Assembly: GCA_013812465.1 (NCBI GenBank)
Contig: JACCTK010000066.1
Location: 1 to 11,200, forward strand
Source: Actinomycetota bacterium
Lineage (GTDB): Bacteria > Actinomycetota > Thermoleophilia > Gaiellales > Gaiellaceae
Reading direction: 5' to 3'
Length of the DNA stretch: 11,200 bases
Part shown: one piece after another, positions 1-11,200 of the stretch
Layout of the letters: each line of letters opens with the position of its first letter
How positions within the stretch are numbered: the stretch's first letter is position 1
Notes under the pieces: model-generated
The model's database searches: none
What the model saw: only the letters and a program-made list of their open reading frames with translations
What the model was told of the DNA's origin: nothing
Program-made: the position numbers and the translations under genes

Positions 1-108
1 ATGACCGCGATCTGCGCGCTGATACTGGCCAAGCATCCCGAGCTGACGCCCTTCCAGCTGAAGAGCGTTCTCTACCTGACGGCGACCAACGTGGGAGGTG
101 GACGATGA
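1..108 (+). CDS. C-terminal end of a subtilisin-like (S8) serine protease, partial
   Basis: The first 35 codons, ending in TGA, read as the helix that follows the catalytic Ser in subtilases: TAICALILAKHPELTPFQLK, then SVLYLTATN. Subtilases usually have G-T-S-x-A-A-P-H-V just before an A-x-x-A-L-L-x-x-x-x-P-x-L-T-P-x-Q-V-K segment, and the match to the second part is close. The catalytic Ser and everything before it would lie left of the window, so the ATG at position 1 is probably internal rather than the true start. The TGA overlaps the ATG of the GAF gene (ATGA, 105-108), which implies a shared transcript and coupled translation. The assignment rests on a short C-terminal segment only. Confidence 0.6.
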   Translation: MTAICALILAKHPELTPFQLKSVLYLTATNVGGGR

Positions 109-746
109 GCGAGAAGACCGAGCTGCAGGCCGCTGTCGCGGCCGGCGTGATCGGCTCCGAGGAGGCGTTCCGCGGTCTGTTGGCCGCGATCGTCGAGGTC
201 GCGCGCTCGATCTTCGGCGCAAGAGCCTCGTCGATCCTCCTCCTCGACGAGGAGACAGAGGAGCTGGTCTTCGAGGCGGTCGTGGGGGAGGGAGAGGAGG
301 AGCTCCTTGGAATGCGCTTCCCCGCCGGCAAGGGCATCGCGGGCTGGGTGCTGGCGACCCGGACGCCTCTGGTGATCGAGGACGTTCGTGAGGATCCGCG
401 CTTCGCCACCGATGTCGCGGAGGACACGGGCTACGTGCCGAGTGGCCTGATGGCGGCGCCGCTCCTGCACGACGAGCAGTCGCTCGGGGTGCTCGAAGTG
501 CTCGACCGGCCGGGCGCGTCGCTCTTCAGCCTGCAGGAGATGGAGCTCCTTGGCCTTTTCGCGAATCAGGCCTCAATCGCCGTCGATCTGCTGCAGCGGG
601 CGCGGAAAGCAAGTCGGCTGCTGGATGCGGACGGCGAGCTTCAGGTCGTGGCGCGGCTCGCCGCGGCGGTCGACAAGCTGGAGGACGATCGGCGCGAAGC
701 GGGCCTGAGGCTTCTCGGCGAGCTTGCAGACACGCTCGGGAAGTAG
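105..746 (+). CDS. GAF domain-containing sensor protein
   Basis: This is a 213-residue soluble protein. A single GAF domain spans roughly residues 20-165, with the family's typical run: RASSILLLDEETEELVFEAV, then a GEGEEELLGMRFPAGKGIAGW turn, TRTPLVIEDV, DPRF, the S-x-L-x-A-P-L segment, GVLEVLDR, and a closing F-S-x-x-E-x-x-L-L-x-x-F-A-N-Q-A helix. GAF domains bind small ligands (cyclic nucleotides, chromophores, metabolites) or mediate dimerisation. No output domain follows, only a C-terminal helical tail of about 45 residues that could be a dimerisation helix, so it probably works with a partner protein. The ATG at 105 has a GGGAGG at 93-98 and overlaps the upstream protease stop by 4 nt, so the two are likely co-translated. 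The ligand cannot be told from the sequence. Confidence 0.88.
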   Translation: MSEKTELQAAVAAGVIGSEEAFRGLLAAIVEVARSIFGARASSILLLDEETEELVFEAVVGEGEEELLGMRFPAGKGIAGWVLATRTPLVIEDVREDPRFATDVAEDTGYVPSGLMAAPLLHDEQSLGVLEVLDRPGASLFSLQEMELLGLFANQASIAVDLLQRARKASRLLDADGELQVVARLAAAVDKLEDDRREAGLRLLGELADTLGK

Positions 747-757
747 ACGAAGAGCCC

Positions 758-779
758 GGTGGCTGTCACCCGCTTCTCG
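758..779 (+). repeat. Dispersed repeat, left copy (GGTGRCTGTCACC type)
   Basis: GGTGGCTGTCACC followed by CGCTTCTCG. The same 22 bases recur with one mismatch at 1818-1839. The first 13 bases are a near-palindrome around a central CTG, with GGTG and CACC arms. This copy lies between the convergent GAF and oxidoreductase genes, where such a hairpin could also help transcription end. Confidence 0.6.
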
Positions 780-790
780 CCGCCAACCGA

Positions 791-1759
791 CTACGGAATC
801 TCCAACACAACCTTTCCGACCGCGCCCTGCTCTCCGGCGCGGTGGGCTGCGCGCACCTCCTCGAGTGGAAACCGGAGGAGCGGGAGCGGCTTCAGCGCGC
901 CGTCCGCAAGCGCTCGACTGAGCTCGGCGACCGCCTCGCGCTTTGCCTCCTCCGGCACCGCGAAGACGAGCAGCCAGCGGAGGGTGATGTTGTCCGGCAG
1001 CAGCCAGCGAACGGGGATCGCGGGCATCTCCTCGTCCACCGCATACGTCGCAATCGTCCCGTTCGCCGCGAGGACCTGACGATTCAGGTCGAGGTTGGCC
1101 GCGAACGCGACCTCGATGACACGGTCGACGCCCGCGCCAGCTGTGAGCTCGGCGACACGCGCCGGAACATCGTCCTGACGGTAGTTGAGAATGGAATCGG
1201 CTCTCGCGGTCCGCGCGATCGCGGCCTTGTCGTCGCTCGACACCGTCGTGACGACCCTTGCTCCACCGAGGCGGGCGAGCTGGATCGCATAGAAGCCGAC
1301 CGCGCCGGCGCCGCCTGCAACGAGAATCGTCTGCCCGGAGACGGGACCGTCGGCGAAGACCGCTCTATGAGCAGTCTTCGCGGGAATGCCGAGACAGACG
1401 GCGAGGTCGAACGAGACATCGGCTGGTAGCGCCACCGCCTGCGCCTCGGGAACGACCGAGAACTGTGCGGCTGTTCCCCACTGTCGCAGGTACGCCGCAT
1501 CCCAGAGCCACACCCGCTCCCCGACGCGACCCGGATCGACCCCTGCGCCGACCGCGTCGATCACCCCCGCGGCGTCGTGGTGCGGGATCTGAAACGGGAA
1601 CGACAGCTCGCCACGCGCCCGTCCCTTCCAGTCTGTTGGGTTGATACCGGAGAGGGCGATGCGGACGCGCACTTCCCCGCCGCGCGGCTCCGGCGTCGGA
1701 AGCTCGCCGACCTCGAGCACGTCGACATCCCCAGTGGACTTGTAGTACGCCGCGATCAT
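791..1759 (-). CDS. Zinc-independent quinone oxidoreductase / MDR-family NAD(P)-dependent alcohol dehydrogenase-like
   Basis: About 322 residues, the usual length for NADPH:quinone reductases of the medium-chain dehydrogenase/reductase superfamily. The N-terminal GroES-like domain shows AYYKSTGDVDVLEVGELPTP, GINPTDWKGR and HHDAAGVIDAVGAGVDP. The Rossmann domain carries the dinucleotide-binding AGGAGAVG at about residues 148-155, followed by the AIQLARLGGARVVTTVSS strand. The cysteine-rich structural zinc loop of alcohol dehydrogenases is absent, which favours the QOR branch. The expected reaction is NAD(P)H-dependent reduction of a quinone or enone; the substrate is not predictable. The frame stays open to a GTG at 1813, but those extra 18 codons are encoded by the repeat at 1802-1814 and resemble no family N-terminus, so the ATG at 1759 is preferred although its RBS is weak. 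The gene stands alone and is convergent with the GAF gene. Confidence 0.88.
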   Translation of the reverse strand: MIAAYYKSTGDVDVLEVGELPTPEPRGGEVRVRIALSGINPTDWKGRARGELSFPFQIPHHDAAGVIDAVGAGVDPGRVGERVWLWDAAYLRQWGTAAQFSVVPEAQAVALPADVSFDLAVCLGIPAKTAHRAVFADGPVSGQTILVAGGAGAVGFYAIQLARLGGARVVTTVSSDDKAAIARTARADSILNYRQDDVPARVAELTAGAGVDRVIEVAFAANLDLNRQVLAANGTIATYAVDEEMPAIPVRWLLPDNITLRWLLVFAVPEEAKREAVAELSRALADGALKPLPLLRFPLEEVRAAHRAGEQGAVGKVVLEIP

Positions 1760-1801
1760 CGAAGGCTCTGCAAACGCGTCCAGGCTATCTCGCCGGAACG
1801 C

Positions 1802-1839
1802 GGTGACTGTCACCGAAGGTGACTGTCACCCGCTTCTCG
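1802..1839 (+). repeat. Tandem pair of GGTGACTGTCACC repeats, right copy
   Basis: GGTGACTGTCACC occurs at 1802-1814 and again at 1818-1830, 16 bases apart. The second copy is followed by CGCTTCTCG, as in the copy at 758-779. Both have the same orientation as the left copy, so the oxidoreductase gene sits between direct repeats about 1.06 kb apart. Confidence 0.6.
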
Positions 1840-1853
1840 TCGGACCGCAGAAA

Positions 1854-1884
1854 AGGCCCGGGCGCCACACGCTCGCCCGGGCCT
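1854..1884 (-). terminator. Rho-independent terminator of the GPVAE-repeat gene
   Basis: Perfect 11-bp stem, AGGCCCGGGCG (1854-1864) pairing with CGCCCGGGCCT (1874-1884), with a 9-nt loop. On the minus strand it lies 24 nt past the TAA at 1909-1911 and is followed by TTTTCTG. The plus-strand side has a shorter A-rich flank, so minus-strand use is favoured. Confidence 0.75.
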
Positions 1885-1908
1885 CGAAAATCTGATCGGC
1901 CGCTCCCG

Positions 1909-2112
1909 TTACTCCGCGACCGGCCCCTCTGCGACGGGACCCTCAGCGACCGGACCCTCTGCAACTGGCCCGTGAGCCTCGAAGTCCGGCTCGTCGTCGT
2001 CGTTCCGCTCAGCGACAGGACCTTCAGCGACGGGGCCTTCGGCGACGGGACCCTCTGCTACTGGGCCGTGGGCCTCGACCTCGTCCTCTGGGCGATTCGC
2101 CTCGTCCGACAT
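1909..2112 (-). CDS. Small acidic protein built of GPVAE pentapeptide repeats, function unknown
   Basis: A 67-residue protein with two copies of a 23-residue unit (residues 13-35 and 45-67). Each is E-A-H followed by four GPVAE pentapeptides. The spacer between them is acidic (R-N-D-D-D-E-P-D-F), and the first unit is also preceded by acidic residues. There is no Cys, Ser (apart from position 2), Thr or Lys, no signal peptide and no hydrophobic helix, so it should be cytosolic and probably disordered. The two copies differ at many third codon positions while encoding the same peptide, which suggests the amino-acid sequence is under selection. An excellent RBS (AAGGAGG, 8 nt before the ATG) and a strong terminator after the stop show a real single-gene unit. 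Repeated-core peptide (RiPP) precursor or disordered stress/buffer protein are both guesses; no maturation enzyme is next to it. Confidence 0.72.
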   Translation of the reverse strand: MSDEANRPEDEVEAHGPVAEGPVAEGPVAEGPVAERNDDDEPDFEAHGPVAEGPVAEGPVAEGPVAE

Positions 2113-2120
2113 TCGATGCT

Positions 2121-2127
2121 CCTCCTT
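2121..2127 (-). promoter_or_regulatory. Strong Shine-Dalgarno for the GPVAE-repeat gene
   Basis: CCTCCTT on the plus strand, AAGGAGG on the minus strand, 8 nt before the ATG at 2112. It fixes the start and is the main reason to accept such a low-complexity ORF as a gene. Confidence 0.75.
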
Positions 2128-2228
2128 TTCGGCGCGGGATGCGCGGTCTGCTCAACAAGACATGGGGTGCGGGCGAAATCTTCCCTGCGCGACTTCAAAT
2201 ATGCAAGGTGGAGTGAGATGCTGCCGCG

Positions 2229-3911
2229 GTGCGCGGACTCGGCAAACGACTCCGGGACACCGGCGCCGCGTTCGGAGCGATTGCGCAGAACGCGAATCTG
2301 CGTTGGCTCGAGCTCGCGTGGACAGCCTCCATCGTCGGACACTACGCCTTTCTCATCGCCGTCTCCGTCTATGCGTACAACGAGGGAGGAGAGAAGGCGG
2401 TCGGTCTCGTCTTCCTCGTGCGGCTCATCCCGGCTGCCCTGATCTCCCCCTTCGCCGGTCTTCTCGGTGACCGCTACCGAAGAGACCGGGTTCTGCTCAT
2501 CACCAACGCGACGCGCATCGTGCTGGTCGGAGCGGCCGCCGGCGCCGTGTTCCTCGACGCGTCCTCGACCGTCGTCTACGCGCTCTCGATCGCGGCAACG
2601 ATCGCGACGACTCCGTTTCGCTCCTCTCAGGCGGCCCTGACCCCGACGCTCGCTCGGACACCGACGGAGCTGACCGCGGCCAATGCGGTGGCAAGCGGAA
2701 TCGAGAGCATCGCCATCTTCGTCGGGCCCGCGCTCGCGGGCATCCTCCTCGGCATTGCCAGCACTGGGCTCGTCTTCGCGCTGACGGCGCTGATGATCGT
2801 CGCTTCGACAGTCTTTCTCCTTTTGATCCGGTTCGAACATGTGCCCACGCCCAAGCGCGAGATCGAAGCGGGAACCATCCTCTCCGAGGCATTCGCGGGC
2901 TTCACGACGCTCGGGCGGCACCCTGCGCTCCGCGTGATGATGGTGCTCCTGACTGCGCAAACTGCGATCGCCGGCGCGGTGCAGGTGTTCATCGTCGTGT
3001 CGGCGATCGAGCTGCTCGACCTCGGAGAGGGAGGAGTCGGCTACCTCAACTCGGCCATCGGCATCGGAGCGTTCATCGGCGCGGTCGGAGCCCTCTCGCT
3101 CGCTGGGGCCGACCGGCTCAGCACGCCGTTCATGGTGGGCATCGCGCTCATGGGACTGCCGCTGATCGCAATCGGCATCTGGCCCAACGTCCTGACCGCG
3201 GTCGTCGTTCTGGCCGTGCTGGGAATCGGGAGCTCGCTCGTGGACGTGTCCGGGTTGACTCTCGTGCAGCGCGCTGTCCCCGACGAGGTGATGGCGCGGG
3301 TTTTCGGGGTCATCCAGATGCTCTGGCTCGCCTCGATCGGCATCGGCGCCGCGCTCGTGCCCGTGCTGATCGCTTGGCTCGGCATCAAGGCAGCCCTCAT
3401 CGCAGCGGGCGCGTTCCTGCCCGTCCTCGTAGTCTTGCTCGGCGCCAAGGTCGCCAGGATCGACGCTGCTGCGCCCGCTCCGGACGCGGACGAGCTCAGG
3501 ATCCTCGCCTCGGTGCCGATCTTCGCCCCGCTGCCCGGAGGATCCCTCGAGCACCTGGCAGGGCGTCTCGTCCCGATGCGCCTAGAGGCGGGCGCGATGA
3601 TCGTCCGCGAAGGCGACTCCGGCGATCGCTTCTACATCGTCGCCGAGGGCGAGGTTCAGGTCTCCCAGGGCGGCGCCGTTCTCTCCGAGCTCGAAGCCGG
3701 CGGGTACTTCGGTGAGATCGCGCTCATACGCGACATTCCGCGGACCGCGACGGTGACGGCACGCACTCCGGTCGTGCTCTACGCGCTCGATCGGGAAGAC
3801 TTCCTCGCCGCGGTGACCGGCCACTCGCAGGCGGCTGAAGCTGCCGAGTCGGTAATGAGCGCCCGGTTGGCCGGGCCGGCTGCGATCGGCTATCGGTCGA
3901 CGGCGTCGTGA
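2229..3911 (+). CDS. MFS transporter with C-terminal cyclic nucleotide-binding domain
   Basis: A 560-residue fusion. Residues 1 to about 410 form a major facilitator of the MFS_3 (EntS-like exporter) type: hydrophobic helices begin near residue 25, and the loop after TM2 carries the signature GLLGDRYRRDRVLL. Residues about 421-545 are a cNMP-binding (CRP/PKA regulatory-like) domain: ILASVPIFAPLPGGSLEHLA, GDSGDRFYIVAEGEVQV, and the phosphate-binding cassette YFGEIALIRDIPRTATV, which keeps the Gly-Glu pair and the Arg. The likely role is an efflux pump at the inner membrane gated by a cyclic nucleotide, or carrying a degenerate sensor domain. The GTG at 2229 is the only start after an in-frame stop at 2214-2216. 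A GGAG at 2210-2213 is rather far from it, so translation initiation here is not ideal. The stop (TGA 3909-3911) overlaps the next gene's ATG. Confidence 0.88.
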   Translation: MRGLGKRLRDTGAAFGAIAQNANLRWLELAWTASIVGHYAFLIAVSVYAYNEGGEKAVGLVFLVRLIPAALISPFAGLLGDRYRRDRVLLITNATRIVLVGAAAGAVFLDASSTVVYALSIAATIATTPFRSSQAALTPTLARTPTELTAANAVASGIESIAIFVGPALAGILLGIASTGLVFALTALMIVASTVFLLLIRFEHVPTPKREIEAGTILSEAFAGFTTLGRHPALRVMMVLLTAQTAIAGAVQVFIVVSAIELLDLGEGGVGYLNSAIGIGAFIGAVGALSLAGADRLSTPFMVGIALMGLPLIAIGIWPNVLTAVVVLAVLGIGSSLVDVSGLTLVQRAVPDEVMARVFGVIQMLWLASIGIGAALVPVLIAWLGIKAALIAAGAFLPVLVVLLGAKVARIDAAAPAPDADELRILASVPIFAPLPGGSLEHLAGRLVPMRLEAGAMIVREGDSGDRFYIVAEGEVQVSQGGAVLSELEAGGYFGEIALIRDIPRTATVTARTPVVLYALDREDFLAAVTGHSQAAEAAESVMSARLAGPAAIGYRSTAS

Positions 3912-4330
3912 TGGCGACAGAGACGGAGGTCGCGCGCATCCAGGCGGTGCTGGACGGCTTTCATGCCGCTGCCTCGAGCGCTGACGAGGCCGGATATCTG
4001 GCGCTACTCGCGCCGGACGCGGTCTTTCTCGGCACGGACGCGGGCGAGCGCTGGGCAGGCGAGACCTACCGCGCCTTCATCCACTCGTACTTCTCGCGTG
4101 GGATCGGCTGGACGTACGCGCCGTCGCAGAGATCGGTCGATATCGCCGCCGATGGCCGAACGGCATGGTTCCACGAGCAGCTCGAGAACGAGTCGTACGG
4201 GGTTTGCCGCGGGACGGGAGTCCTGCAACTACGGGATGGCGAATGGCAGATCGAGCAGTACAACCTCACCATTCCGATCCCGAACGAGCTGGCCGGGGAG
4301 ATCGTGGCGAGGATCCGGGAAACGAAGTGA
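3911..4330 (+). CDS. SnoaL-like / NTF2-like domain protein
   Basis: A 139-residue soluble protein covering one NTF2-like alpha+beta barrel. The N-terminal helix (EVARIQAVLDGFHAAASSAD), YLALLAPDAVFLGTDAGERW, AFIHSYFSRGIGW, and the strand pair ending GVLQLRDGEWQIEQYNLTIPIP are typical of SnoaL_3 / DUF4440-like proteins. The fold serves as a small-molecule pocket in isomerases, cyclases and binding proteins; no catalytic set specific to one reaction is evident. The ATG at 3911 overlaps the transporter stop (TGATG), indicating coupled translation. A GTG three bases earlier is also in frame but less likely. Its link to the transporter suggests a shared substrate or signal, which is inference. Confidence 0.85.
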   Translation: MATETEVARIQAVLDGFHAAASSADEAGYLALLAPDAVFLGTDAGERWAGETYRAFIHSYFSRGIGWTYAPSQRSVDIAADGRTAWFHEQLENESYGVCRGTGVLQLRDGEWQIEQYNLTIPIPNELAGEIVARIRETK

Positions 4331-4331
4331 C

Positions 4332-4348
4332 GTAGCGCGCGACGCTAC
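4332..4348. terminator. Possible bidirectional terminator hairpin between convergent genes
   Basis: GTAGCG (4332-4337) pairs perfectly with CGCTAC (4343-4348) over a 5-nt loop. It sits at the meeting point of the NTF2-like gene and the DUF421 gene and overlaps the latter's stop codon. The stem is short and T-tracts are poor. Confidence 0.35.
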
Positions 4349-4785
4349 TTCCGCTCGATAAAGCTGATGCGCCCGCTGGTCTCGAGAACCGCCCACTCCA
4401 CGCGATCGAGCGACCCGATGCCCTCCTGTCTCGCCGCTGCGAGGAGCTCGCCGAGCGTGATGCGGTTTCGCGCCAGGTTCCGGTCGATGGGCTCGCCATC
4501 CTGCACGACGATGACGGGCTCGCCGTCGATCACCGGCCGCAGGAACGGAACCTTGAAGCTCCCGTAGGAGACGACCACCGTGAGCACCGCGATCGTCCCG
4601 CCAGCGAGGACGAGCCCGGTCACCGAGAAGTCGTTCTGCGTCACGCCCTGTTGGACGAGATCCCCGATCATCACGAGCAGGATCAGGTCGAACGGCTGCA
4701 GCGAGGCCAGCTCTCGGCGCCCGACTATCCGGGTCACGAAGAGGACGAAGAAGAACGCGAGTGTCGCTCGGAGGACGATGTCCAT
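4345..4785 (-). CDS. DUF421 (YetF-like) membrane protein
   Basis: A 146-residue protein with two or three N-terminal membrane helices (residues about 4-20, 34-48 and 56-74) and a soluble C-terminal domain. Family signatures visible are TRIVGRRELASLQPFDLILLV in the membrane part, then VIDGEPVIVVQDGEPIDRNLARNRIT, and L-L-A-A-A-R-Q-E-G-I before a terminal strand (RVEWAVLETSGRISFI). This matches DUF421/YetF proteins, whose biochemical role is not well defined. The upstream gene ends at 4795, 9 nt before this ATG, and an AGGA next to that stop would serve as RBS, so the two form an operon. Length is short for the family but both expected parts are present. Confidence 0.87.
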   Translation of the reverse strand: MDIVLRATLAFFFVLFVTRIVGRRELASLQPFDLILLVMIGDLVQQGVTQNDFSVTGLVLAGGTIAVLTVVVSYGSFKVPFLRPVIDGEPVIVVQDGEPIDRNLARNRITLGELLAAARQEGIGSLDRVEWAVLETSGRISFIERK

Positions 4786-4794
4786 TGCTCTGTC

Positions 4795-5334
4795 CTAGGG
4801 CCAGACGATCGCGTCGCGGTCGAGGGAGAGCAGCAGGCGCTCGCCGTCGTAGAGATCGACATCCTGCGAGCGCGTTCCGAGCGCGGTCGGATTGACCTGG
4901 AAGTGAAGGTAGAGCCGGTGCTCGTCACCTGCGGGAATGCGTCCGAGCTCGAGCGCGATGCGACCGTTTCTGCTCGCCTCGCCCACGGGCGAGGGCTCGA
5001 CGGTGTTCAGCGTGATGTCCTCGAGCCAGTCCGAGTCGAGCACGAGCGTCGCGCTCTCGAGCTCCTCGATCGCCTGGACGCGGAATCGGGCCTGAAAGAA
5101 GATCCCACCGCGGACCTTCGTCGGCGCCGAGACCTCGAGCCGCGCCGCGCTGGTCTCCGCGGAGCTGACGTCGACCTGCTGGCCGAACACGCTGAAGAGC
5201 CCGAGCACGAGAATCGCGGCGAGTAGCCCGACGAGCACACGACGAACGATCGGGCGCCGCTCGCGATCGACCAGGTCGCGATCGTGCTTGAGCGTCAGCC
5301 CCTGCGGGACGGCCATCACCTTGCGGTTCGGCAT
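4795..5334 (-). CDS. Single-pass membrane protein with extracytoplasmic domain, unknown function
   Basis: A 179-residue protein. Residues 1-32 are hydrophilic and charged (R-R-P-I-V-R-R just before the helix), residues about 33-50 are one transmembrane helix (LVGLLAAILVLGLFSVFG), and the rest is a beta-rich domain without Cys. By the positive-inside rule the C-terminal domain faces outward. I do not recognise the family. Strand-like alternation (RLEVSAPTKVRGGIFFQARF, SATLVLDSDW, HRLYLHFQVNP) suggests an immunoglobulin-like or beta-sandwich fold. The ATG at 5334 has GGGG 3 nt upstream and GGAGG slightly further away; an internal ATG (codon 7, with AAGG before it) is possible. It is the first gene of the operon with DUF421, so a joint role at the envelope is plausible. 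Confidence 0.72.
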   Translation of the reverse strand: MPNRKVMAVPQGLTLKHDRDLVDRERRPIVRRVLVGLLAAILVLGLFSVFGQQVDVSSAETSAARLEVSAPTKVRGGIFFQARFRVQAIEELESATLVLDSDWLEDITLNTVEPSPVGEASRNGRIALELGRIPAGDEHRLYLHFQVNPTALGTRSQDVDLYDGERLLLSLDRDAIVWP

Positions 5335-5384
5335 TTGCCCCGCTGGCCCTCCTTCACGCAGCCGCAGATGCTCCCCTGGATGAT

Positions 5385-5493
5385 TGACTTGCCGCGACAG
5401 GGTCGGTCTTTCTCGCTCAGCCTGATCACATCCAGCGCACGACGGTCACGCAGCAAACAGGTGTCGATGAGCTGACTCGTGTTCAGGCGCGCG
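5385..5493 (+). pseudogene. Degraded 5' fragment of a GyrI-like paralogue (compare 7331-7450)
   Basis: In one frame this reads SVFLAQPDHIQRTTV and then TQQTGVDELTRVQA. The intact gene at 7343 reads SVFLAPPDRTERHDVAV and then MQQTTVDELTQIQA. The two DNA stretches align with many synonymous third-base differences and one 6-base in-frame gap, so both descend from coding sequence. Similarity stops after the shared V/I-Q-A (about 5489). The codon matching the intact gene's GTG start is GCG here, and an in-frame TGA lies at 5385-5387. No gene can be expressed from it. It is a remnant of a duplicated or deleted paralogue. Confidence 0.6.
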
Positions 5494-5896: not shown

Positions 5897-6463
5897 CTAT
5901 TGGGCCGCCGAGGCGCGCAGCCGTGTCACCGTGCCGAGAAAGAACGGGACCAACAGCAGGCCGAAGACGGCGTGAATGAAGAGCTGGAACGACTGGTCGA
6001 TCATCGGGCTCGTGAACCACTCGAACACGAACCGACCAAGGATCTGGATGTTTACGACGTAGAGCACGATGCCGTACGCGAGGCCGGCGCCGAGCAACAC
6101 CAACCAGTTGCGGAAGAACGGCGTCAGCAGCGCGAAGGCGATGCCGAAAGCCAGCGACAGGTTCAGATGCGTGATCAGTCCGATGACGACGTCGCCCGGG
6201 ATGAGTGCCGGATCCATCGTAGGTGCGTCGGTGCCGTGGAAGATCGTCGACATGTCGAGCATCGGCGCGACTCCAGGCAGTCCGGCTCGCGTCGCCCAGC
6301 CCATCTCGGCGAGCAGGAACGCCAGTCCTGCGGCGAGGCCGGCAACCGCGCCACGGGCGACCCAGTCGCCCAGACGGAAGACGAGCGCTTCCTGCGGCGA
6401 AGCAAGCTCGACCGGTCGCTGATCGACGGCGTTCCCATCGACGCGTCTCTGGCTCGTATCCAT
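5897..6463 (-). CDS. Multi-pass membrane protein, unknown function
   Basis: A 188-residue protein: about 33 hydrophilic residues, then four hydrophobic stretches at roughly residues 35-55 (GAVAGLAAGLAFLLAEMGWA), 92-112 (VIGLITHLNLSLAFGIAFAL), 118-138 (NWLVLLGAGLAYGIVLYVVN) and 160-178 (QLFIHAVFGLLLVPFFLG). Two His and an Asn lie near or within the helices (T-H-L-N-L-S and F-I-H-A-V-F-G). I cannot name the family. The arrangement recalls small integral membrane proteins of unknown function (DUF1440/DUF6789 type), and this comparison is only an impression. The start is well supported: ATG at 6463 with GGGAG about 10 nt upstream. No partner gene is adjacent, so it is probably monocistronic. Confidence 0.75.
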   Translation of the reverse strand: MDTSQRRVDGNAVDQRPVELASPQEALVFRLGDWVARGAVAGLAAGLAFLLAEMGWATRAGLPGVAPMLDMSTIFHGTDAPTMDPALIPGDVVIGLITHLNLSLAFGIAFALLTPFFRNWLVLLGAGLAYGIVLYVVNIQILGRFVFEWFTSPMIDQSFQLFIHAVFGLLLVPFFLGTVTRLRASAAQ

Positions 6464-6770
6464 CTAAAAGTCTCCCTTCCGTTCTGTTGTGCGCTGGTCT
6501 TCCCCACGGAGGGGTAGGGAAACCGTTTGTGAGCACATCTGGACAACCGCGGCAAACATGTGACTCTCCACGCCGCGTCGCGCGCGAGCGGGAAGACGGG
6601 CCAAGCTGAACATCGCGCGGCGACGACACAGACGAGATCGACGTGCAGTCTTGGTCGCCGCTGCGGGCACCTTCCGCCGGAGGATCCGCCCGAAGCGGCC
6701 GCCGCGGCAACCGCCATGTGGGCGGATCGGCACGAGCTACGGGGCGCCGTCCCGGTAAGAATCAGCAGAC
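6464..6770. other. Intergenic stretch without a supported gene
   Basis: About 300 bases upstream of the membrane-protein gene at 5897-6463 (-). The ORFs here are Arg/Ala/Ser-rich reading-frame shadows without RBS. A small hairpin (CCCC 6502-6505 with GGGG 6511-6514) lies about 40 nt before the membrane-protein start and could sit in its leader. The promoter of that gene should be here, but I cannot pick convincing -35/-10 boxes. Confidence 0.4.
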
Positions 6771-6956
6771 GTGTCTGAGCTTCGTGTCCGCCGCGATGAG
6801 CTTTCCGTCTGCGAGATGTTGGAGGGTGAGCGGTTACGCGCGCTCTCCGGCGAGGGCGAGGCGCAGCTTCTGGTCGAGCGCTTCTCCTTGAGCGCCGCCG
6901 CAGGCTACGTCGTCAGCCTCGATCCAGCCCAAATAGATGTTCCGACGCTTCTTTAG
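6771..6956 (+). CDS. Doubtful small ORF, 61 residues
   Basis: GTG start, reading MSELRVRRDELSVCEMLEGE at the N-terminus, then helical, Leu/Glu/Ala-rich sequence with a short beta-like end (AAGYVVSLDPAQIDVPTLL). The amino-acid mix and moderately high GC at third positions look more protein-like than the surrounding frames, and nothing better occupies the stretch. Against it, there is no clear Shine-Dalgarno before the GTG, no family is recognised, and its stop overlaps that of the convergent gene (6953-7222) by three bases. It may be a real short gene, the tail of a decayed one, or chance. Confidence 0.3.
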   Translation: MSELRVRRDELSVCEMLEGERLRALSGEGEAQLLVERFSLSAAAGYVVSLDPAQIDVPTLL

Positions 6957-7222
6957 TCGGCCGCCTCGAGCAGGTCCGAGTAGACCGCCGAGGACGCCTC
7001 GGCCACCCTGCTCGCGAGCCAGTCGCGATCCATTCCGCCCTCGACTGCCGGGACGAAGATGACGCCCGCGCGGTTGACGTTCAGGTCGAACTCGGCCACC
7101 GTCGCCTCGGCGATCGCGAACCAGCCCTGCGGCCGGCCTGCGCGCTCCACGGCGGCGGCGGCGTCGTGGATCAGGTAGCGACGTCCTCGCTTCCGGACGT
7201 AAACCGGCATCGGCTCGCTCAT
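6953..7222 (-). CDS. Small conserved-looking hypothetical protein, 89 residues
   Basis: A soluble protein with a basic N-terminus (P-V-Y-V-R-K-R-G-R-R-Y-L-I-H-D), a central block GRPQGWFAIAEATVAEFDLN followed by VNRAGVIFVPAVEGG, and a C-terminal helix (WLASRVAEASSAVYSDLLEA). The even composition and alternation of strands and helices argue for a genuine folded protein of about 90 residues, perhaps alpha/beta. No known domain or catalytic motif is evident. The ATG at 7222 has no strong Shine-Dalgarno; an in-frame ATG four codons later (7210) follows GAGCGAG and is an alternative. The gene is divergent from the GyrI-like gene, with about 120 bp between them. Confidence 0.68.
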   Translation of the reverse strand: MSEPMPVYVRKRGRRYLIHDAAAAVERAGRPQGWFAIAEATVAEFDLNVNRAGVIFVPAVEGGMDRDWLASRVAEASSAVYSDLLEAAD

Positions 7223-7342
7223 GCGAGAAGCGTAGTCAGGCCCGACTCACCTCGCGAGCGTGGGCTCAGATCGAGAGCTCGGCGATCGAGAACATCCAGA
7301 CGCTCTGGCGACCCGCGCGTTTCCTTGTGCTTGACTCGCGCC

Positions 7343-7768
7343 GTGACACGGTCGGTCTTCCTCGCCCCGCCCGATCGCACCGAGCGGCACGACGTCGCGG
7401 TCATGCAGCAGACCACCGTCGATGAGTTGACCCAGATTCAGGCGATCTGGCCCGCCTTCGAGCAACTCCTCGGACTGCGGGGACGCAAGATGTACGCGTT
7501 GATCGACGAGCGCTTGAACACCTACACGGTGTGCACTCCCCTCAAGGACGGCGACCGCCCCGACGATCTGGGTCTGCAGCTCGGCTCCTTGGCCGGAGGC
7601 TGGTATCTGCGAGGCCGCATCGTCGGCGAGCCTCCCCAGGTCTACGAGCGGATCGCCGAGGGGATGGCAGAGCTCGAGGCGGCGATGACCCGCGACGACA
7701 CCCGGCCGCTCGTCGAGTTCTACCGCCGTCGCGATGAAATCGAGCTCTGGCTGCCGATAGAGATTTGA
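7343..7768 (+). CDS. GyrI-like / effector-binding domain protein
   Basis: A 141-residue protein. The core GRKMYALIDERLNTYTVCTP, then DLGLQLGSLAGGWYLRGRIVGEPPQVYERIAEGMAEL, RPLVEFYRRRDEIELWLPI matches the GyrI-like small-molecule-binding fold (as in SbmC/GyrI and the effector domains of Rob/BmrR regulators), including the late E-x-Y/F-R and the closing E-L-x-x-P-I. No DNA-binding domain is attached, so it is a stand-alone ligand-binding protein. Two starts are possible: GTG at 7343 or ATG at 7403. The longer form is preferred because the degraded copy at 5385-5493 is similar through the same upstream codons with synonymous changes. The frame is open further upstream, but that part lacks protein character. 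It faces the cupin gene across a short gap. Confidence 0.72.
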   Translation: MTRSVFLAPPDRTERHDVAVMQQTTVDELTQIQAIWPAFEQLLGLRGRKMYALIDERLNTYTVCTPLKDGDRPDDLGLQLGSLAGGWYLRGRIVGEPPQVYERIAEGMAELEAAMTRDDTRPLVEFYRRRDEIELWLPIEI

Positions 7769-7781
7769 CCGGAAAGGTCTA

Positions 7782-7796
7782 CGCCCCTACGGGGTT
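7782..7796. terminator. Weak terminator-like hairpin between convergent genes
   Basis: CCCC (7784-7787) pairs with GGGG (7791-7794) over TAC, with a possible G-U extension and TTTCGG following on the plus strand. It lies 13 bases after the GyrI-like stop and before the cupin stop, the right place for a bidirectional terminator. The stem is short. Confidence 0.35.
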
Positions 7797-7827
7797 TCGG
7801 TGCAACGTCATGAAAGGCCGCTAGTCG

Positions 7828-8382
7828 CTAGCCGAGCCGCGCGCAATAGGTGGGCTGATAGCCGAGCGCTCGCCCGAGCGGCGCCCCGAACGCCAGTGCT
7901 GTCCGCTGGAGCGCCGCGGGCGGGAAGGGCAGCCGCACCGTGTCGAAGTGCGCTCTCGCGATCACGGCGAGCCGAAGCGGGTTGGGCAGGCCCTTCCCGT
8001 TGGTCTTGCCATCTGCGGCGAGACCGAACATCGTCTCGATGAGCGACTCGAACATGAGCGCCGGCGTGATCTCGGTGAGGAAACGAAGCTCGTAGTCGCC
8101 TGCGTTCCAGAACTTGTGTGCTCGGCCGGGCTCGATCGTGAGCTTCTCGTTCGGACGGGCGGTGATCGTCTCACCTCCTAGCTCGAGGCCGAGCGTCCCG
8201 GAGAGGACCTCGAAGCGCTCCGTCTGGTAGGGGTGCACGTGGGCGGCGGCCACGACCCCGTCGGGGCGGACGGTGGTCTCGACCAGCACCGCGGCGCCGT
8301 TCGTCTCCGCGGCGGTGCGCCTGAAGGTGAGGCGCTCACCGGTCACCGGGTTCTCGAGGATGTCTCCTGGGCGAATCATCAT
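7828..8382 (-). CDS. Cupin domain protein
   Basis: 184 residues from the ATG at 8382. Cupin motif 1, G(X)5HXH(X)4E(X)6G, is complete (G42, H48, H50, E55, G62), and motif 2 keeps the G-R-A-H-x-x-x-N part (H89, N93). The four metal ligands of a single-domain cupin are therefore present, most likely holding Fe, Mn or Zn. Residues about 100-184 are a mostly helical extension (SLIETMFGLAADGKTNGKG and onward) common in cupin-2 proteins of actinobacteria and proteobacteria. The reaction is not predictable; dioxygenase, isomerase or simple sugar/metal binding are all seen in this fold. An AGAGGAA sits about 5 nt before the chosen ATG; a TTG (8385) and a second ATG (8379) flank it. Confidence 0.87.
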   Translation of the reverse strand: MMIRPGDILENPVTGERLTFRRTAAETNGAAVLVETTVRPDGVVAAAHVHPYQTERFEVLSGTLGLELGGETITARPNEKLTIEPGRAHKFWNAGDYELRFLTEITPALMFESLIETMFGLAADGKTNGKGLPNPLRLAVIARAHFDTVRLPFPPAALQRTALAFGAPLGRALGYQPTYCARLG

Positions 8383-8508
8383 CAATTCCTCTCGTCTGGT
8401 TTCTCTCGACCAGGAGAGGGTGCTCGCGAAGGCGTCGGAAATCGTCGCCCCCCGACGGGATCTCGAGTCCTCCCGCGAGGGGATCCTCAGAGGCGGAACG
8501 GGGGGAGG

Positions 8509-9189
8509 TCAGGCTTCGGTCGCCGGCTCGGTCCGAGTGAGGCCGCTCTCGTAGGCAAAGATCACAGCCTGGACTCGGTCACGCAGGTGGAGCTTCCTGA
8601 GGATGTGCTTGACATGGGTCTTGACGGTTGATTCCTCCACCATGAGCGTCGTGGCGATCTCGCCGTTCGAGAGCCCGCGCGCGATCAACCCGAGTACCTC
8701 CCGCTCGCGTGCCGTGAGCTCTTCCAGGCGCGCCTCCGTCGCGGTGTCGGGCGCGGGTTGCCGCGCCATCCGCTGGATCACGGTTCGGGTGACCGAGGGA
8801 GATAGGAGCGAGTCGCCGGCTGCGATTGTGTGGATGGCCGCGATCAGCTCCTCCGGTCGCGTGCGCTTGAGCAGGAACCCCGACGCGCCCGCGTCGAGCG
8901 CGCCGAAGATGTAGTCCTCCTGCTCGAACGTGGTGAGAATCACGACCCTTGCGTCGGGTGAGAAGGCGACGATCTCGCGCGTCGCCGAGATGCCGTCGAG
9001 GTCGGGCATGCGGACGTCCATCAGCACGACGTCAGGAGCGAGGCCACGCGTCTCGACGACCGCGGCGCGGCCGTCGCCCGCCTCGCCGACGACCTCGATC
9101 GACGCGTCGCTAGAGAGCACTGCTTTGAGGCCTGCGCGCATGAGGGCGTCGTCGTCGACCAGCAGGACACGGACCCTCCCGAAGCTCAA
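8509..9189 (-). CDS. NarL/FixJ-family response regulator (REC + LuxR HTH)
   Basis: A 226-residue transcription factor. The receiver domain (residues 5-122) has the acidic pocket D12-D13, phospho-acceptor D58 in VVLMDVRMPDLDG, T86 and K108. The C-terminal LuxR-type HTH (about 153-215) shows LTAREREVLGLIARGLSNGE, followed by EESTVKTHVKHILRKL. Phosphorylation by the adjacent kinase should trigger dimerisation and DNA binding. The start is TTG (9187-9189), which overlaps the kinase's TGA as TTGA with GGAGAG upstream, so the pair is translationally coupled. All key residues are intact although the partner kinase appears truncated. Target genes cannot be deduced. Confidence 0.93.
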   Translation of the reverse strand: MSFGRVRVLLVDDDALMRAGLKAVLSSDASIEVVGEAGDGRAAVVETRGLAPDVVLMDVRMPDLDGISATREIVAFSPDARVVILTTFEQEDYIFGALDAGASGFLLKRTRPEELIAAIHTIAAGDSLLSPSVTRTVIQRMARQPAPDTATEARLEELTAREREVLGLIARGLSNGEIATTLMVEESTVKTHVKHILRKLHLRDRVQAVIFAYESGLTRTEPATEA

Positions 9190-9950
9190 CGCCGCTCTCC
9201 GCTTCGGTAAGGCAGGCGGACGCGCACACTGAAGCGGCCGTCGCCCGCCTCAGCGGCGAGGCGACCACCGAGCATTGCCGTTCGCTCGCGCATTCCGACG
9301 ATCCCGTGCCCCTCGAGGGAAGACCCACCGACAGCGGTCGGGTTGGTCACGAGGAGCTCGAGCGCATCGGCGCCGAAGGTGACCACGACCTCCGCGTTTC
9401 CACTTCCGTGCCGGGCGGCGTTGGTGAGGGCCTCCTGGAGGATCCGATACGCGGCTCGGTCGACACCGGGAGTGAGTGGCGGACGTGATCCATCGATGCG
9501 AACGGCGACGGCATGTCCGGACGCGCGATGGCGCTCGACGAGCAAGTCGAGCGCGGCGAGGCCGGGAGGTGGCTCCACCTCGCCCGACGCCGCGGCGTCG
9601 TCGTCACGCAGCGCGCGTACGAGCTGGTCGATCTCGCCAACCGTCTCGCGGGCGACGTTCTCGATCGTCTCGAGCGCGGCCCGCGTTCCCACCGGGTCCT
9701 GCTCTTGCAAGAGGCGCGCAGCGCCAGCCTGCACGAGGATCACGTTGATCGCGTGACCGGCGGAGTCGTGAAGCTCGCGCGCGATCCGAGTGCGCTCCTC
9801 CGCGGTGGCAAGCCGGCGCTCGCGCTCCGTGTCCCGCTCGGCCCGCAACGCTCGCTCCTCCAGGTCTGTGATCCGTTGGCGGCGCTGTCGCACCCGGTCG
9901 CCGATCATCCAGGCGCCGCCCCAGACGACAGCGCCGAAGAGCAGCGGCAC
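9186..9950 (-). CDS. Sensor histidine kinase (HisKA_3 + HATPase), N-terminally truncated
   Basis: The catalytic half is complete: dimerisation/phosphotransfer helix with ERTRIARELHDSAGHAINV (phospho-accepting His at 9768-9770), N-box EALTNAARHG and G-box GHGIVGMRERTAMLGG. This is the NarX/DesK-like class that pairs with NarL-type regulators, and the regulator gene overlaps it downstream. Before the coiled coil there is one membrane helix (PVVPLLFGAVVWGGAWMIG), matching the last helix of the usual four to six. The other helices are missing: the kinase-like frame ends near 9970 and an oppositely oriented excisionase gene begins at 10029. A GTG at 9950 (254 aa) is taken as the start; an ATG at 9908 would give a soluble 240-aa form. 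The frame is open to an ATG at 10124, but that part is antisense to the excisionase gene. Relatives are usually near 400 residues. Confidence 0.83.
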   Translation of the reverse strand: MPLLFGAVVWGGAWMIGDRVRQRRQRITDLEERALRAERDTERERRLATAEERTRIARELHDSAGHAINVILVQAGAARLLQEQDPVGTRAALETIENVARETVGEIDQLVRALRDDDAAASGEVEPPPGLAALDLLVERHRASGHAVAVRIDGSRPPLTPGVDRAAYRILQEALTNAARHGSGNAEVVVTFGADALELLVTNPTAVGGSSLEGHGIVGMRERTAMLGGRLAAEAGDGRFSVRVRLPYRSGERR

Positions 9951-10016
9951 GACGGGGAACTCGTCTGCCGCGATTCCAATGGGCCTGGAACGGGGATTGC
10001 AGGCTGGTTGCCACGC

Positions 10017-10021
10017 GGAGG
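10017..10021 (+). promoter_or_regulatory. Shine-Dalgarno of the excisionase-like gene
   Basis: GGAGG, 7 nt before the GTG at 10029. It decides the start against the much longer open frame, which extends left through the kinase gene. Confidence 0.7.
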
Positions 10022-10028
10022 TCCGGGG

Positions 10029-10256
10029 GTGAGCGCCCGCCCGACCGCCGCTGACCGCTTGCTCAGAACCTCCGAGGTCGCCGATCGCCTTGCGGTCAGC
10101 GCCGAGACCGTGCTCCGCTGGCACCGGAGCGGGAAGCTGCCCGGTGGCCGGCGTCTCGGTTCCAACGTGCTCCGGTTCTCCGAGGCCGAGCTCGAGGCGT
10201 GGCTCGAGGGGACGCGGCCGGAGTGCTCACTTGTGTCGGTCCGGGAGGAGGCGTAG
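10029..10256 (+). CDS. Excisionase-like helix-turn-helix protein (Xis / HTH_17)
   Basis: A 75-residue protein that is almost entirely one MerR-like winged HTH: LLRTSEVADRLAVSAETVLR, then WHRSGKLPGGRRLGSNVLRFSEAELEAWLEG. The T-S-E-V-A-x-x-L-x-V-S-x-x-T-V-x-R-W core and the R-F-S-x-x-E-L-E-x-W-L end are the hallmark of HTH_17 / excisionase proteins, which bind next to attachment sites and bias tyrosine recombinases toward excision. The recombinase gene 0.7 kb downstream on the same strand fits this. The start is GTG with GGAGG 7 nt upstream. It is the first gene after the point where the kinase loses its N-terminus. A small transcription regulator of the same fold remains possible. Confidence 0.85.
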   Translation: MSARPTAADRLLRTSEVADRLAVSAETVLRWHRSGKLPGGRRLGSNVLRFSEAELEAWLEGTRPECSLVSVREEA

Positions 10257-10381: not shown

Positions 10382-10687
10382 ATGACGACGGCAACCAAGT
10401 CCGCGACAAGCCAGGTCGAGCAGGTTGATGCCTTGCTTGAGAAGGCGGAAGAGCGGGCGAATCAGGCGGCGACCGACCTCACGGACGTCGTCACGCTCTG
10501 CACGGACGAGGCCGACGGTGAGAGGCTCTTGGTACAAGAGGCCCTCGCTCTGCTCGGTCGCGCCTACCTCGTTCGGCGCTCTGCCCGGTGGACTGTCGGG
10601 GAAGCCGACAAAGCTATCGAGCAGCTCGTGTTCCAGGTGCAGCTCGCCGAGGAGCACGTCGAGAGGAGCATTCACCATGCGAGCTGA
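10382..10687 (+). CDS. Small helical protein of the putative integrative element, unknown function
   Basis: A 101-residue protein, almost all helix-forming: QVEQVDALLEKAEERANQAA, then a middle helix (DGERLLVQEALALLGRAYLV), and a third (EADKAIEQLVFQVQLAEEHV). Charged/hydrophobic spacing suggests a coiled coil or helical bundle. There is no transmembrane segment, signal peptide or known motif. The start is firm: ATG at 10382 with GGAGG at 10371-10375. The next gene's ATG lies inside its last codons (11-nt overlap), so the two are produced together and may interact. The position between excisionase and integrase genes points to a mobile-element accessory protein; its job is not visible from sequence. 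Confidence 0.7.
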   Translation: MTTATKSATSQVEQVDALLEKAEERANQAATDLTDVVTLCTDEADGERLLVQEALALLGRAYLVRRSARWTVGEADKAIEQLVFQVQLAEEHVERSIHHAS

Positions 10688-10946
10688 AACCGTCACCATC
10701 GACCGCGACGTCGTCGAGAGCTTCGTGGTTGAGGTCGATGCCCTCGGGCTCTTCGACTCGCTCCTGAACGCCGGGAACGAGACGAAGTTCTGCGAGCACG
10801 TCTACTCGATCCTCGACCCATTCGAGCGTGCCGCGTTCGGCTCACTGAGCGACGAGGCTGCGGAAGAGCTCCACAACCGTGCGCACGAGCGAGCCCGCTC
10901 GCTAGCCCATTCGTGGTTTGGGGAGGTCCTCGACGGTGCCCGCTGA
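10677..10946 (+). CDS. Small hypothetical protein between excisionase and integrase
   Basis: An 89-residue acidic, soluble protein beginning MRAETVTIDRDVVESFVVEV, with a central DALGLFDSLLNAGNETKFCE segment and a C-terminal helix containing E-E-L-H-N-R-A-H-E-R-A-R-S-L. I recognise no domain. One Cys and several His are scattered and do not form a metal-binding pattern. The ATG at 10677 is preceded by GAGAGGAG at a suitable distance, and the gene overlaps its neighbours on both sides (11 nt upstream, 11 nt with the integrase GTG). This tight packing is typical of phage and plasmid early operons. A helper of integration or a toxin/antitoxin partner are guesses only. Confidence 0.7.
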   Translation: MRAETVTIDRDVVESFVVEVDALGLFDSLLNAGNETKFCEHVYSILDPFERAAFGSLSDEAAEELHNRAHERARSLAHSWFGEVLDGAR

Positions 10947-11200
10947 GCAACGCGGCTCCGTTTACACGACGTCGACCGGCGTCGGCATCCGCTGGACTGA
11001 CGAGACAGGAGCCCGCCGCCGTCAGGCGGGCTTCTCCTCGCCCTCGAAGGCTCGAGCGTGGTTCCGGGACGTCGAGCTTCCCCGCATGCGAGGCGGGCTC
11101 ATCAATGAGCCGCTCACACTCCGCGAGTTCTCCGATCGCTACGTCGCTCGTTACCGCGTCGACCGAGCACCCGCCACCGTGCGCTCGCTCGAGTGGCGCC
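10936..11200 (+). CDS. Tyrosine recombinase / phage integrase, N-terminal part (cut by window edge)
   Basis: 88 codons are visible and the frame is open at the right edge. The first 45 residues form an arm-binding-type domain (GSVYTTSTGVGIRWTDETGA, then RQAGFSSPSKARAWFRDVE), as in actinobacterial integrases where a short three-strand domain precedes the recombinase. Next comes the start of the SAM-like core-binding domain: LTLREFSDRYVARYRVDRAP, then ATVRSLEWR. The catalytic R-H-R-Y residues would lie outside the window. The start is GTG at 10936 with GGGGAGG at 10919-10925, overlapping the preceding gene. With the excisionase-like gene at 10029 it defines a site-specific integrative element (prophage, integrated plasmid or genomic island). 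Confidence 0.85.
   Translation, partial: MPAEQRGSVYTTSTGVGIRWTDETGARRRQAGFSSPSKARAWFRDVELPRMRGGLINEPLTLREFSDRYVARYRVDRAPATVRSLEWR

What the first reader, a model, noticed from the sequence alone, without database searches (positions are those of the whole stretch)
9950..10029. Probable boundary of an integrative element inside a histidine kinase gene
Reading the kinase gene from its 3' end, family-like sequence continues through the last membrane helix to about 9970 and then stops. The expected upstream sensor helices are absent, and an excisionase-like gene with its own RBS begins at 10029 on the other strand, followed by the small genes and the integrase. Kinases of this class normally carry several more helices, so an insertion or element-associated deletion within the gene is the simplest reading. 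The att core should lie within this interval.
Basis: partly seen in the sequence, partly recalled or inferred. Interest (0 to 1): 0.72.

Follow-up and report, generated by a model that had tools for sequence, protein, structure and literature searches.

The report
Gene island at an arginine tRNA
The clipped kinase gene next to an excisionase is real, but comparison with related genomes puts the edge of the inserted DNA about 4.6 kb further left, at an arginine tRNA site, so the clipped gene most likely lies inside an ordinary tRNA-targeting island and does not mark its attachment site.

Summary
The kinase keeps only its last ~263 residues; 113 of 120 listed homologues are 363-440 aa. Homology stops at ~9977, and an HTH_17/AlpA excisionase with its own RBS starts at 10029.

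The inference that this is the element boundary and holds the att core is not supported. Relatives of this xis/int module have a tRNA gene 60-346 bp past the int 3' end in 9 of 11 loci, and in three complete elements xis lies 6.6-18 kb from the distal end. The closest integrase relative (73% over 88 residues) sits at a tRNA-Arg(gcg) gene. The genes at the left of the window flank that same tRNA-Arg(gcg) locus in related genomes, and DNA homology to the closest empty site stops at ~5375, at the tRNA 3' end.

Left flank and integrase thus point independently to one tRNA-Arg(gcg) island running from ~5375 past 11200, with the tRNA expected beyond the right end. The kinase break is then an internal junction, most likely a deletion scar. 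No tRNA copy lies at 9930-10050, and the inverted repeat there is background. A convincing left att copy was not found, the right end is unseen, and an assembly chimera cannot be excluded. Ordinary kind of element; the boundary call needs correcting.

The parts
105..5334 (.). Chromosomal flank: GAF (105-746 +), MFS with cNMP-binding domain (2229-3911 +), SnoaL (3908-4330 +), YetF/DUF421 (4345-4785 -), membrane-protein-like gene (4795-5334 -)
   Evidence: Pfam (4795-5334 has no Pfam match). Subsets of these genes lie beside tRNA-Arg(gcg) in G039, G284, G015, G296
5369..5400 (.). Proposed left end of the inserted DNA, at the place of the tRNA-Arg(gcg) 3' end; possibly a decayed attL
   Evidence: 84.7% DNA identity to G296 over 1023 bases ends at 5375, where the tRNA 3' end follows in G296; identity to G284 ends at 5338. 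The attL resemblance is weak: 25 of 4462 overlapping segments score as well
5897..8385 (.). Proposed island cargo: ORFs 5897-6463 (-), 6953-7222 (-), 7166-7768 (+), cupin 7828-8385 (-)
   Evidence: Cupin_2; first three without Pfam match. 5897-6463 found in 0 of 9 close genomes (no positive control); cupin in 5 of 9, at positions outside the syntenic stretches fetched
8509..9189 (-). LuxR-type response regulator
   Evidence: Response_reg and GerE
9186..9977 (-). Histidine kinase fragment: last membrane helix, HisKA_3, ATPase region
9977..10016 (.). Junction between kinase homology and the xis module; origin of these ~40 bases unknown
   Evidence: Kinase homology ends at 9977; no tRNA 3' end, no TTC[AG]A T-loop motif in 9900-10060
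10029..10256 (+). xis-like gene (HTH_17/AlpA), RBS GGAGG at 10017-10021
10382..10687 (+). orfA, small ORF of unknown function
   Evidence: No Pfam or PHROG match
10677..10946 (+). orfB, small ORF of unknown function; one relative, P0242 (57%)
   Evidence: 2 proteins, one of them the window's own
10936..11199 (+). N-terminal 88 residues of a tyrosine-type integrase, cut by the window end
   Evidence: 73-74% to L151; more distant relatives carry Phage_integrase PF00589

Best explanation
[quoted passage not shown] The left end is at about 5375, next to gene 4795-5334. The right end, with the intact tRNA, is inferred to lie beyond 11200, past the 3' end of int. Inside the island, cargo genes (cupin, response regulator, kinase fragment) meet the integration module xis-orfA-orfB-int at 9977/9978. 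That join is most likely the scar of a deletion or illegitimate recombination that removed the kinase N-terminus and whatever element body once lay upstream of xis. The module would work in the usual way: Int recombines the tRNA 3' end with attP, and Xis directs excision. Shown: the truncation, the module, the tRNA-Arg(gcg) position of the closest int relative, and the stop of synteny at the tRNA 3' end. Inferred: the right end, the cargo status of 5.4-9.98 kb, the deletion, and the function of Int and Xis. The island may no longer excise, since no good attL copy is seen.
For: Module orientation: tRNA 60-346 bp past int, 3' end facing int, in 9 of 11 loci. Three complete elements bounded by 36-47 bp tRNA 3' repeats, with xis 6.6, 18 and 9.6 kb from the distal end. 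Closest int relative L151 (73-74%) beside tRNA-Arg(gcg), followed by a GCV_T/ygfZ-like gene and a molybdopterin oxidoreductase gene. The same two genes follow tRNA-Arg(gcg) in L174, L172 and L176, whose other flank carries the window's GAF, MFS and, in part, SnoaL, DUF421 and 4795-5334 genes. In G296, homology to the window ends at 5375 and tRNA-Arg(gcg) follows. A second int of this type (45% and 37% to two parts of the L151 int) lies beside tRNA-Arg(gcg) in L175. The window holds no tRNA gene. A tandem palindrome in the window's flank occurs in 1 of 129 genomes of the order, G354, home of L151. The kinase is sporadic: 4 of 103 genomes of a family at E <= 1e-60.
Against: No clear attL: the last 20 bases of five tRNA-Arg(gcg) genes match nowhere in the window with fewer than 6 mismatches, and the weak resemblance at 5369-5400 is not significant on its own. 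The tRNA orientation varies: its 3' end faces the relative of gene 4795-5334 in 10 of 15 loci, and in G015 and G057 the tRNA lies on the other strand relative to MFS. L158 has no tRNA past int. L151's own xis-like gene is only 37% similar and on the other strand from int. The right end was not seen. No parental sequence shows the deletion.
Confidence: 0.65

Rival explanations
1. The stretch 5.4-9.98 kb is native chromosome of this lineage. The element proper begins only at the xis module, and the kinase junction is a deletion scar between chromosome and element.
For: The 5.4-9.98 kb genes are of ordinary bacterial kinds; kinase and regulator have 75-80% relatives in Gaiellaceae and in G237 and G325. 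No attL copy marks 5375 clearly.
Against: The homology stop falls at the tRNA 3' end in the closest relative. None of L172, L174, L176, L177 shows cupin, or the kinase or regulator, between the flank genes and the tRNA; L175 has an unrelated-looking kinase pair (31-38%) there, which leaves room for this reading.
Confidence: 0.13
2. Assembly chimera: the contig joins two unrelated fragments at 9977/9978.
For: No whole genome is held; a 11200-base contig is reported for orfB, so the contig may end here; no reads are available.
Against: Left flank and integrase point independently to one tRNA-Arg(gcg) locus; GC is 67.4% and 67.0% on the two sides.
Confidence: 0.12
3. One reading: the element integrated site-specifically inside the kinase gene, with the att core at 9950-10029 and the kinase N-terminus on the far side.
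For: The break is sharp and abuts xis; a 5-bp inverted repeat with 7-bp spacer lies on it. PMC3218068 (passages) reports a subfamily of AICE tyrosine integrases, pSLS, that is an exception to tRNA targeting.
Against: Orientation of the module in relatives, lack of a tRNA copy, background level of the repeat, and the earlier synteny stop at 5375.
Confidence: 0.1

Closest known systems
Actinomycete integrative and conjugative elements (AICE, pSAM2 type)
   Same: Order xis, int, then tRNA 3' end; L159, a relative of the module, has the RepSA initiator of pSAM2 just upstream of xis and tRNA-Asp past int
   Different: The window shows no rep or transfer gene in what it holds
Gaiellales prophage-like and Prim-Pol elements with the same xis/int kind (L122, L152, L105/L157)
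   Same: xis and int relatives; L152 and L105/L157 are bounded by tRNA 3' repeats
   Different: They carry capsid, tape-measure, terminase or Prim-Pol genes; the window has ordinary bacterial genes left of xis
Element in G354 (L151)
   Same: Closest integrase (73-74%), at the tRNA-Arg(gcg) locus that the window's flank also belongs to; shared tandem palindrome
   Different: Prim-Pol, a different xis-like gene, no orfA or orfB match; its integrase reads in two frames

Membership tests
tRNA-targeting tyrosine-integrase island | Tyrosine integrase gene | tested here: inconclusive
   Only 88 N-terminal residues in the window, without Pfam match; relatives have Phage_integrase
tRNA-targeting tyrosine-integrase island | tRNA gene past the int 3' end | not testable with these tools
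   Beyond the window end; met in 9 of 11 relatives' loci
tRNA-targeting tyrosine-integrase island | Copy of the tRNA 3' end at the distal end | tested here: inconclusive
   Homology stops at the right place, 5375, but only a weak resemblance is left there
tRNA-targeting tyrosine-integrase island | Empty site in relatives at the same tRNA | tested here: met
   G296: gene 4795-5334 relative joined to tRNA-Arg(gcg); G039 and G284 likewise by gene order
AICE | Replication initiator and Tra translocase genes | tested here: not met
   None among the window ORFs scanned with Pfam; the part right of 11200 was not seen, so the element is not filed as an AICE
att site inside the kinase gene | Core at 9950-10029 repeated at the other end, followed by the kinase N-terminus | not testable with these tools
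   Other end outside the window; kinase N-terminus absent from the window

The most novel reading that the evidence does not exclude
The sensor-less kinase and its regulator are kept as island cargo: loss of the N-terminal sensor makes a signal-independent kinase whose regulator controls island genes, the kinase reading frame running antisense into xis being a link between the two.
Probability: 0.05. Interest if true: 0.5.

Novelty: new member of a known kind. Interest (0 to 1): 0.3.

Why it matters
It corrects where the inserted DNA begins: a clipped gene next to xis looks like an att site, but comparison with empty sites moves the boundary 4.6 kb and names the likely target, tRNA-Arg(gcg). 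It also shows that locus with an integrase of this kind in two sequenced relatives (L151, L175). For biology at large the element is ordinary.

Tried and rejected
Rejected: TTCCA-ATGGGCC-TGGAA (9974-9990) as a recombinase core site, because such repeats are background. Rejected: a tRNA remnant at the junction. Rejected: kinase N-terminus elsewhere in the window. Led nowhere: phage DNA search (no match); viral-contig scans with single proteins (one weak xis relative, none); orfB in 129 genomes (none, no positive control); paper searches (0 papers, 2 papers, listing only, 3 papers, listing, of which passages of one, PMC3218068, were seen). A possible conserved peptide upstream of xis was too weak to use. 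The short kinases P0015, P0029 and P0030 (269-274 aa) start 9, 4 and 9 residues before the position of the window's break; their contigs could not be reached, so I cannot tell internal starts from similar truncations.

Rows dropped or counted as misses: for the int-tRNA count, L108 and L110 (contig ends in or near int) and L109 (contig ends about 140 bp past int) were left out; L106 (tRNA match at E 0.06) and L158 (none) count as misses; L155's integrase is remote (25%). L175 was found later, is not in the 9 of 11, and has a run of N between two copies of the tRNA end. The xis search scored at most 15 candidates per genome, so its 43 of 399 is a lower bound. In G264 the xis is on the strand opposite to int, with Prim-Pol between the two and terminase on its other side. 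The name ygfZ is recalled; the calls give GCV_T.

Full report
What is there. The minus-strand kinase gene loses its family homology at 9977. Of the 120 homologues listed (of 7274 found), 113 are 363-440 aa and 7 are 253-326 aa. P0001 and P0002, the best two, carry DUF7134 at the N-terminus. The window keeps the last membrane helix, HisKA_3 and the ATPase region. By eye, DNA from copies in G237 and G325 resembles the window up to the GGA codon at 9975-9977 and not beyond. The excisionase starts at 10029 with GGAGG at 10017-10021, followed by two small ORFs and an integrase N-terminus.

Which way the module points. Relatives were sought in Thermoleophilia genomes: xis in 43 of 399 genomes and int in 11 of 399, both at E <= 1e-6. 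Among 11 loci with sequence past int, 9 have a tRNA gene 60-346 bp past the int 3' end, on the other strand, 3' end facing int; L106 has a weak match and L158 none. The tRNAs differ (Val, Ala, Asp, Arg, Thr, Met). Direct repeats of the tRNA 3' end bound three complete elements: 40 bp in G366 (about 9.7 kb), 47 bp in G093 (about 19.3 kb), 36 bp in G264 (about 14.3 kb). The xis lies about 6.6, 18 and 9.6 kb from the distal end. Prim-Pol and capsid genes lie between in G366 and a terminase gene in G264. Other neighbours on the upstream side of xis are RepSA in L159, TrwC relaxase in L108, and capsid and tape-measure genes in L122. [quoted passage not shown] By this pattern the att site of the window's module belongs to the right of int, not left of xis.

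Where the inserted DNA begins. The closest integrase relative is L151 in G354 (73-74% over 88 residues), beside tRNA-Arg(gcg), which is followed by a GCV_T/ygfZ-like gene, a molybdopterin oxidoreductase gene and nitrile hydratase alpha. The best matches of the window's MFS gene are in G039, G346, G015 and G296, and of its GAF gene in G081, G346, G039 and G015. In L174 (G039), L176 (G284) and L172 (G015), GAF and MFS, with SnoaL in L174 and DUF421 and the 4795-5334 gene in L176, are followed by tRNA-Arg(gcg) and then by the same GCV_T/ygfZ-like and oxidoreductase genes as in L151. In G296, closest for gene 4795-5334 (88% protein), 84.7% DNA identity runs to window 5375 and the tRNA-Arg(gcg) 3' end follows. 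Relatives of that gene were found in 41 of 129 genomes; of the 30 loci fetched, 15 hold tRNA-Arg(gcg) in their flanks, its 3' end facing the gene in 10. L175 (G057) has another integrase of this kind beside tRNA-Arg(gcg). The window has no tRNA gene.

Reading. The left flank says that something is inserted at tRNA-Arg(gcg) at ~5375. The integrase at the right, by kinship, targets tRNA-Arg(gcg). These were found independently, and both fit one island from ~5375 to beyond 11200 in the orientation seen in the relatives. The kinase, its regulator and the cupin then lie inside it, and the 9977/9978 join is internal. A tRNA copy at that join, expected if two islands were stacked, is absent. A deletion or illegitimate recombination is therefore the likeliest cause, but no parental sequence is at hand to prove it. 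The kinase fragment is probably a pseudogene; whether it is made was not tested.

Weak points. No clear attL copy was found. The stretch 5369-5400 resembles the tRNA 3' end only with gaps; 25 of 4462 overlapping segments score as well, though it sits at the predicted spot. In G284 the homology stops at 5338 rather than 5375. The tRNA orientation at this locus varies between genomes. Related integrases can use different tRNAs, as the list above shows, so a 73% relative makes tRNA-Arg(gcg) likely rather than certain. The right end is unseen, and an assembly chimera cannot be excluded without reads, though it would have to join two fragments that both belong to the same tRNA locus.

Noticed in passing
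window 1802-1830; L151 1637-1665: Two 13-bp palindromes GGTGACNGTCACC three bases apart, none expected by chance in the window. Among 129 genomes of the order only G354 has the pair, at two places.
   Followed up: partly
window 1909-2112: ORF with repeated EGPVA-type pentapeptides from two short 15-bp tandem arrays (1912-1962 and 2009-2052).
   Followed up: no
   Followed up: partly
L172 15376-15449 against L174 5721-5794: tRNA-Arg(gcg) lies on opposite strands relative to the same neighbours in G015 and G039, as if the gene had flipped in place.
   Followed up: no
L175 about 8140-8340: A whole tRNA-Arg(gcg) and, after a run of N, a second copy of most of it, next to an integrase.
   Followed up: no
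L152 2550-3551: A transposase-like ORF (by eye, not scanned) lies between xis and int of the G366 element.
   Followed up: no
window kinase, xis and orfB in the protein database: The database lists the window's orfB (two contigs, longest 11200 bases) but no identical protein for its kinase or xis among the 120 best.
   Followed up: no
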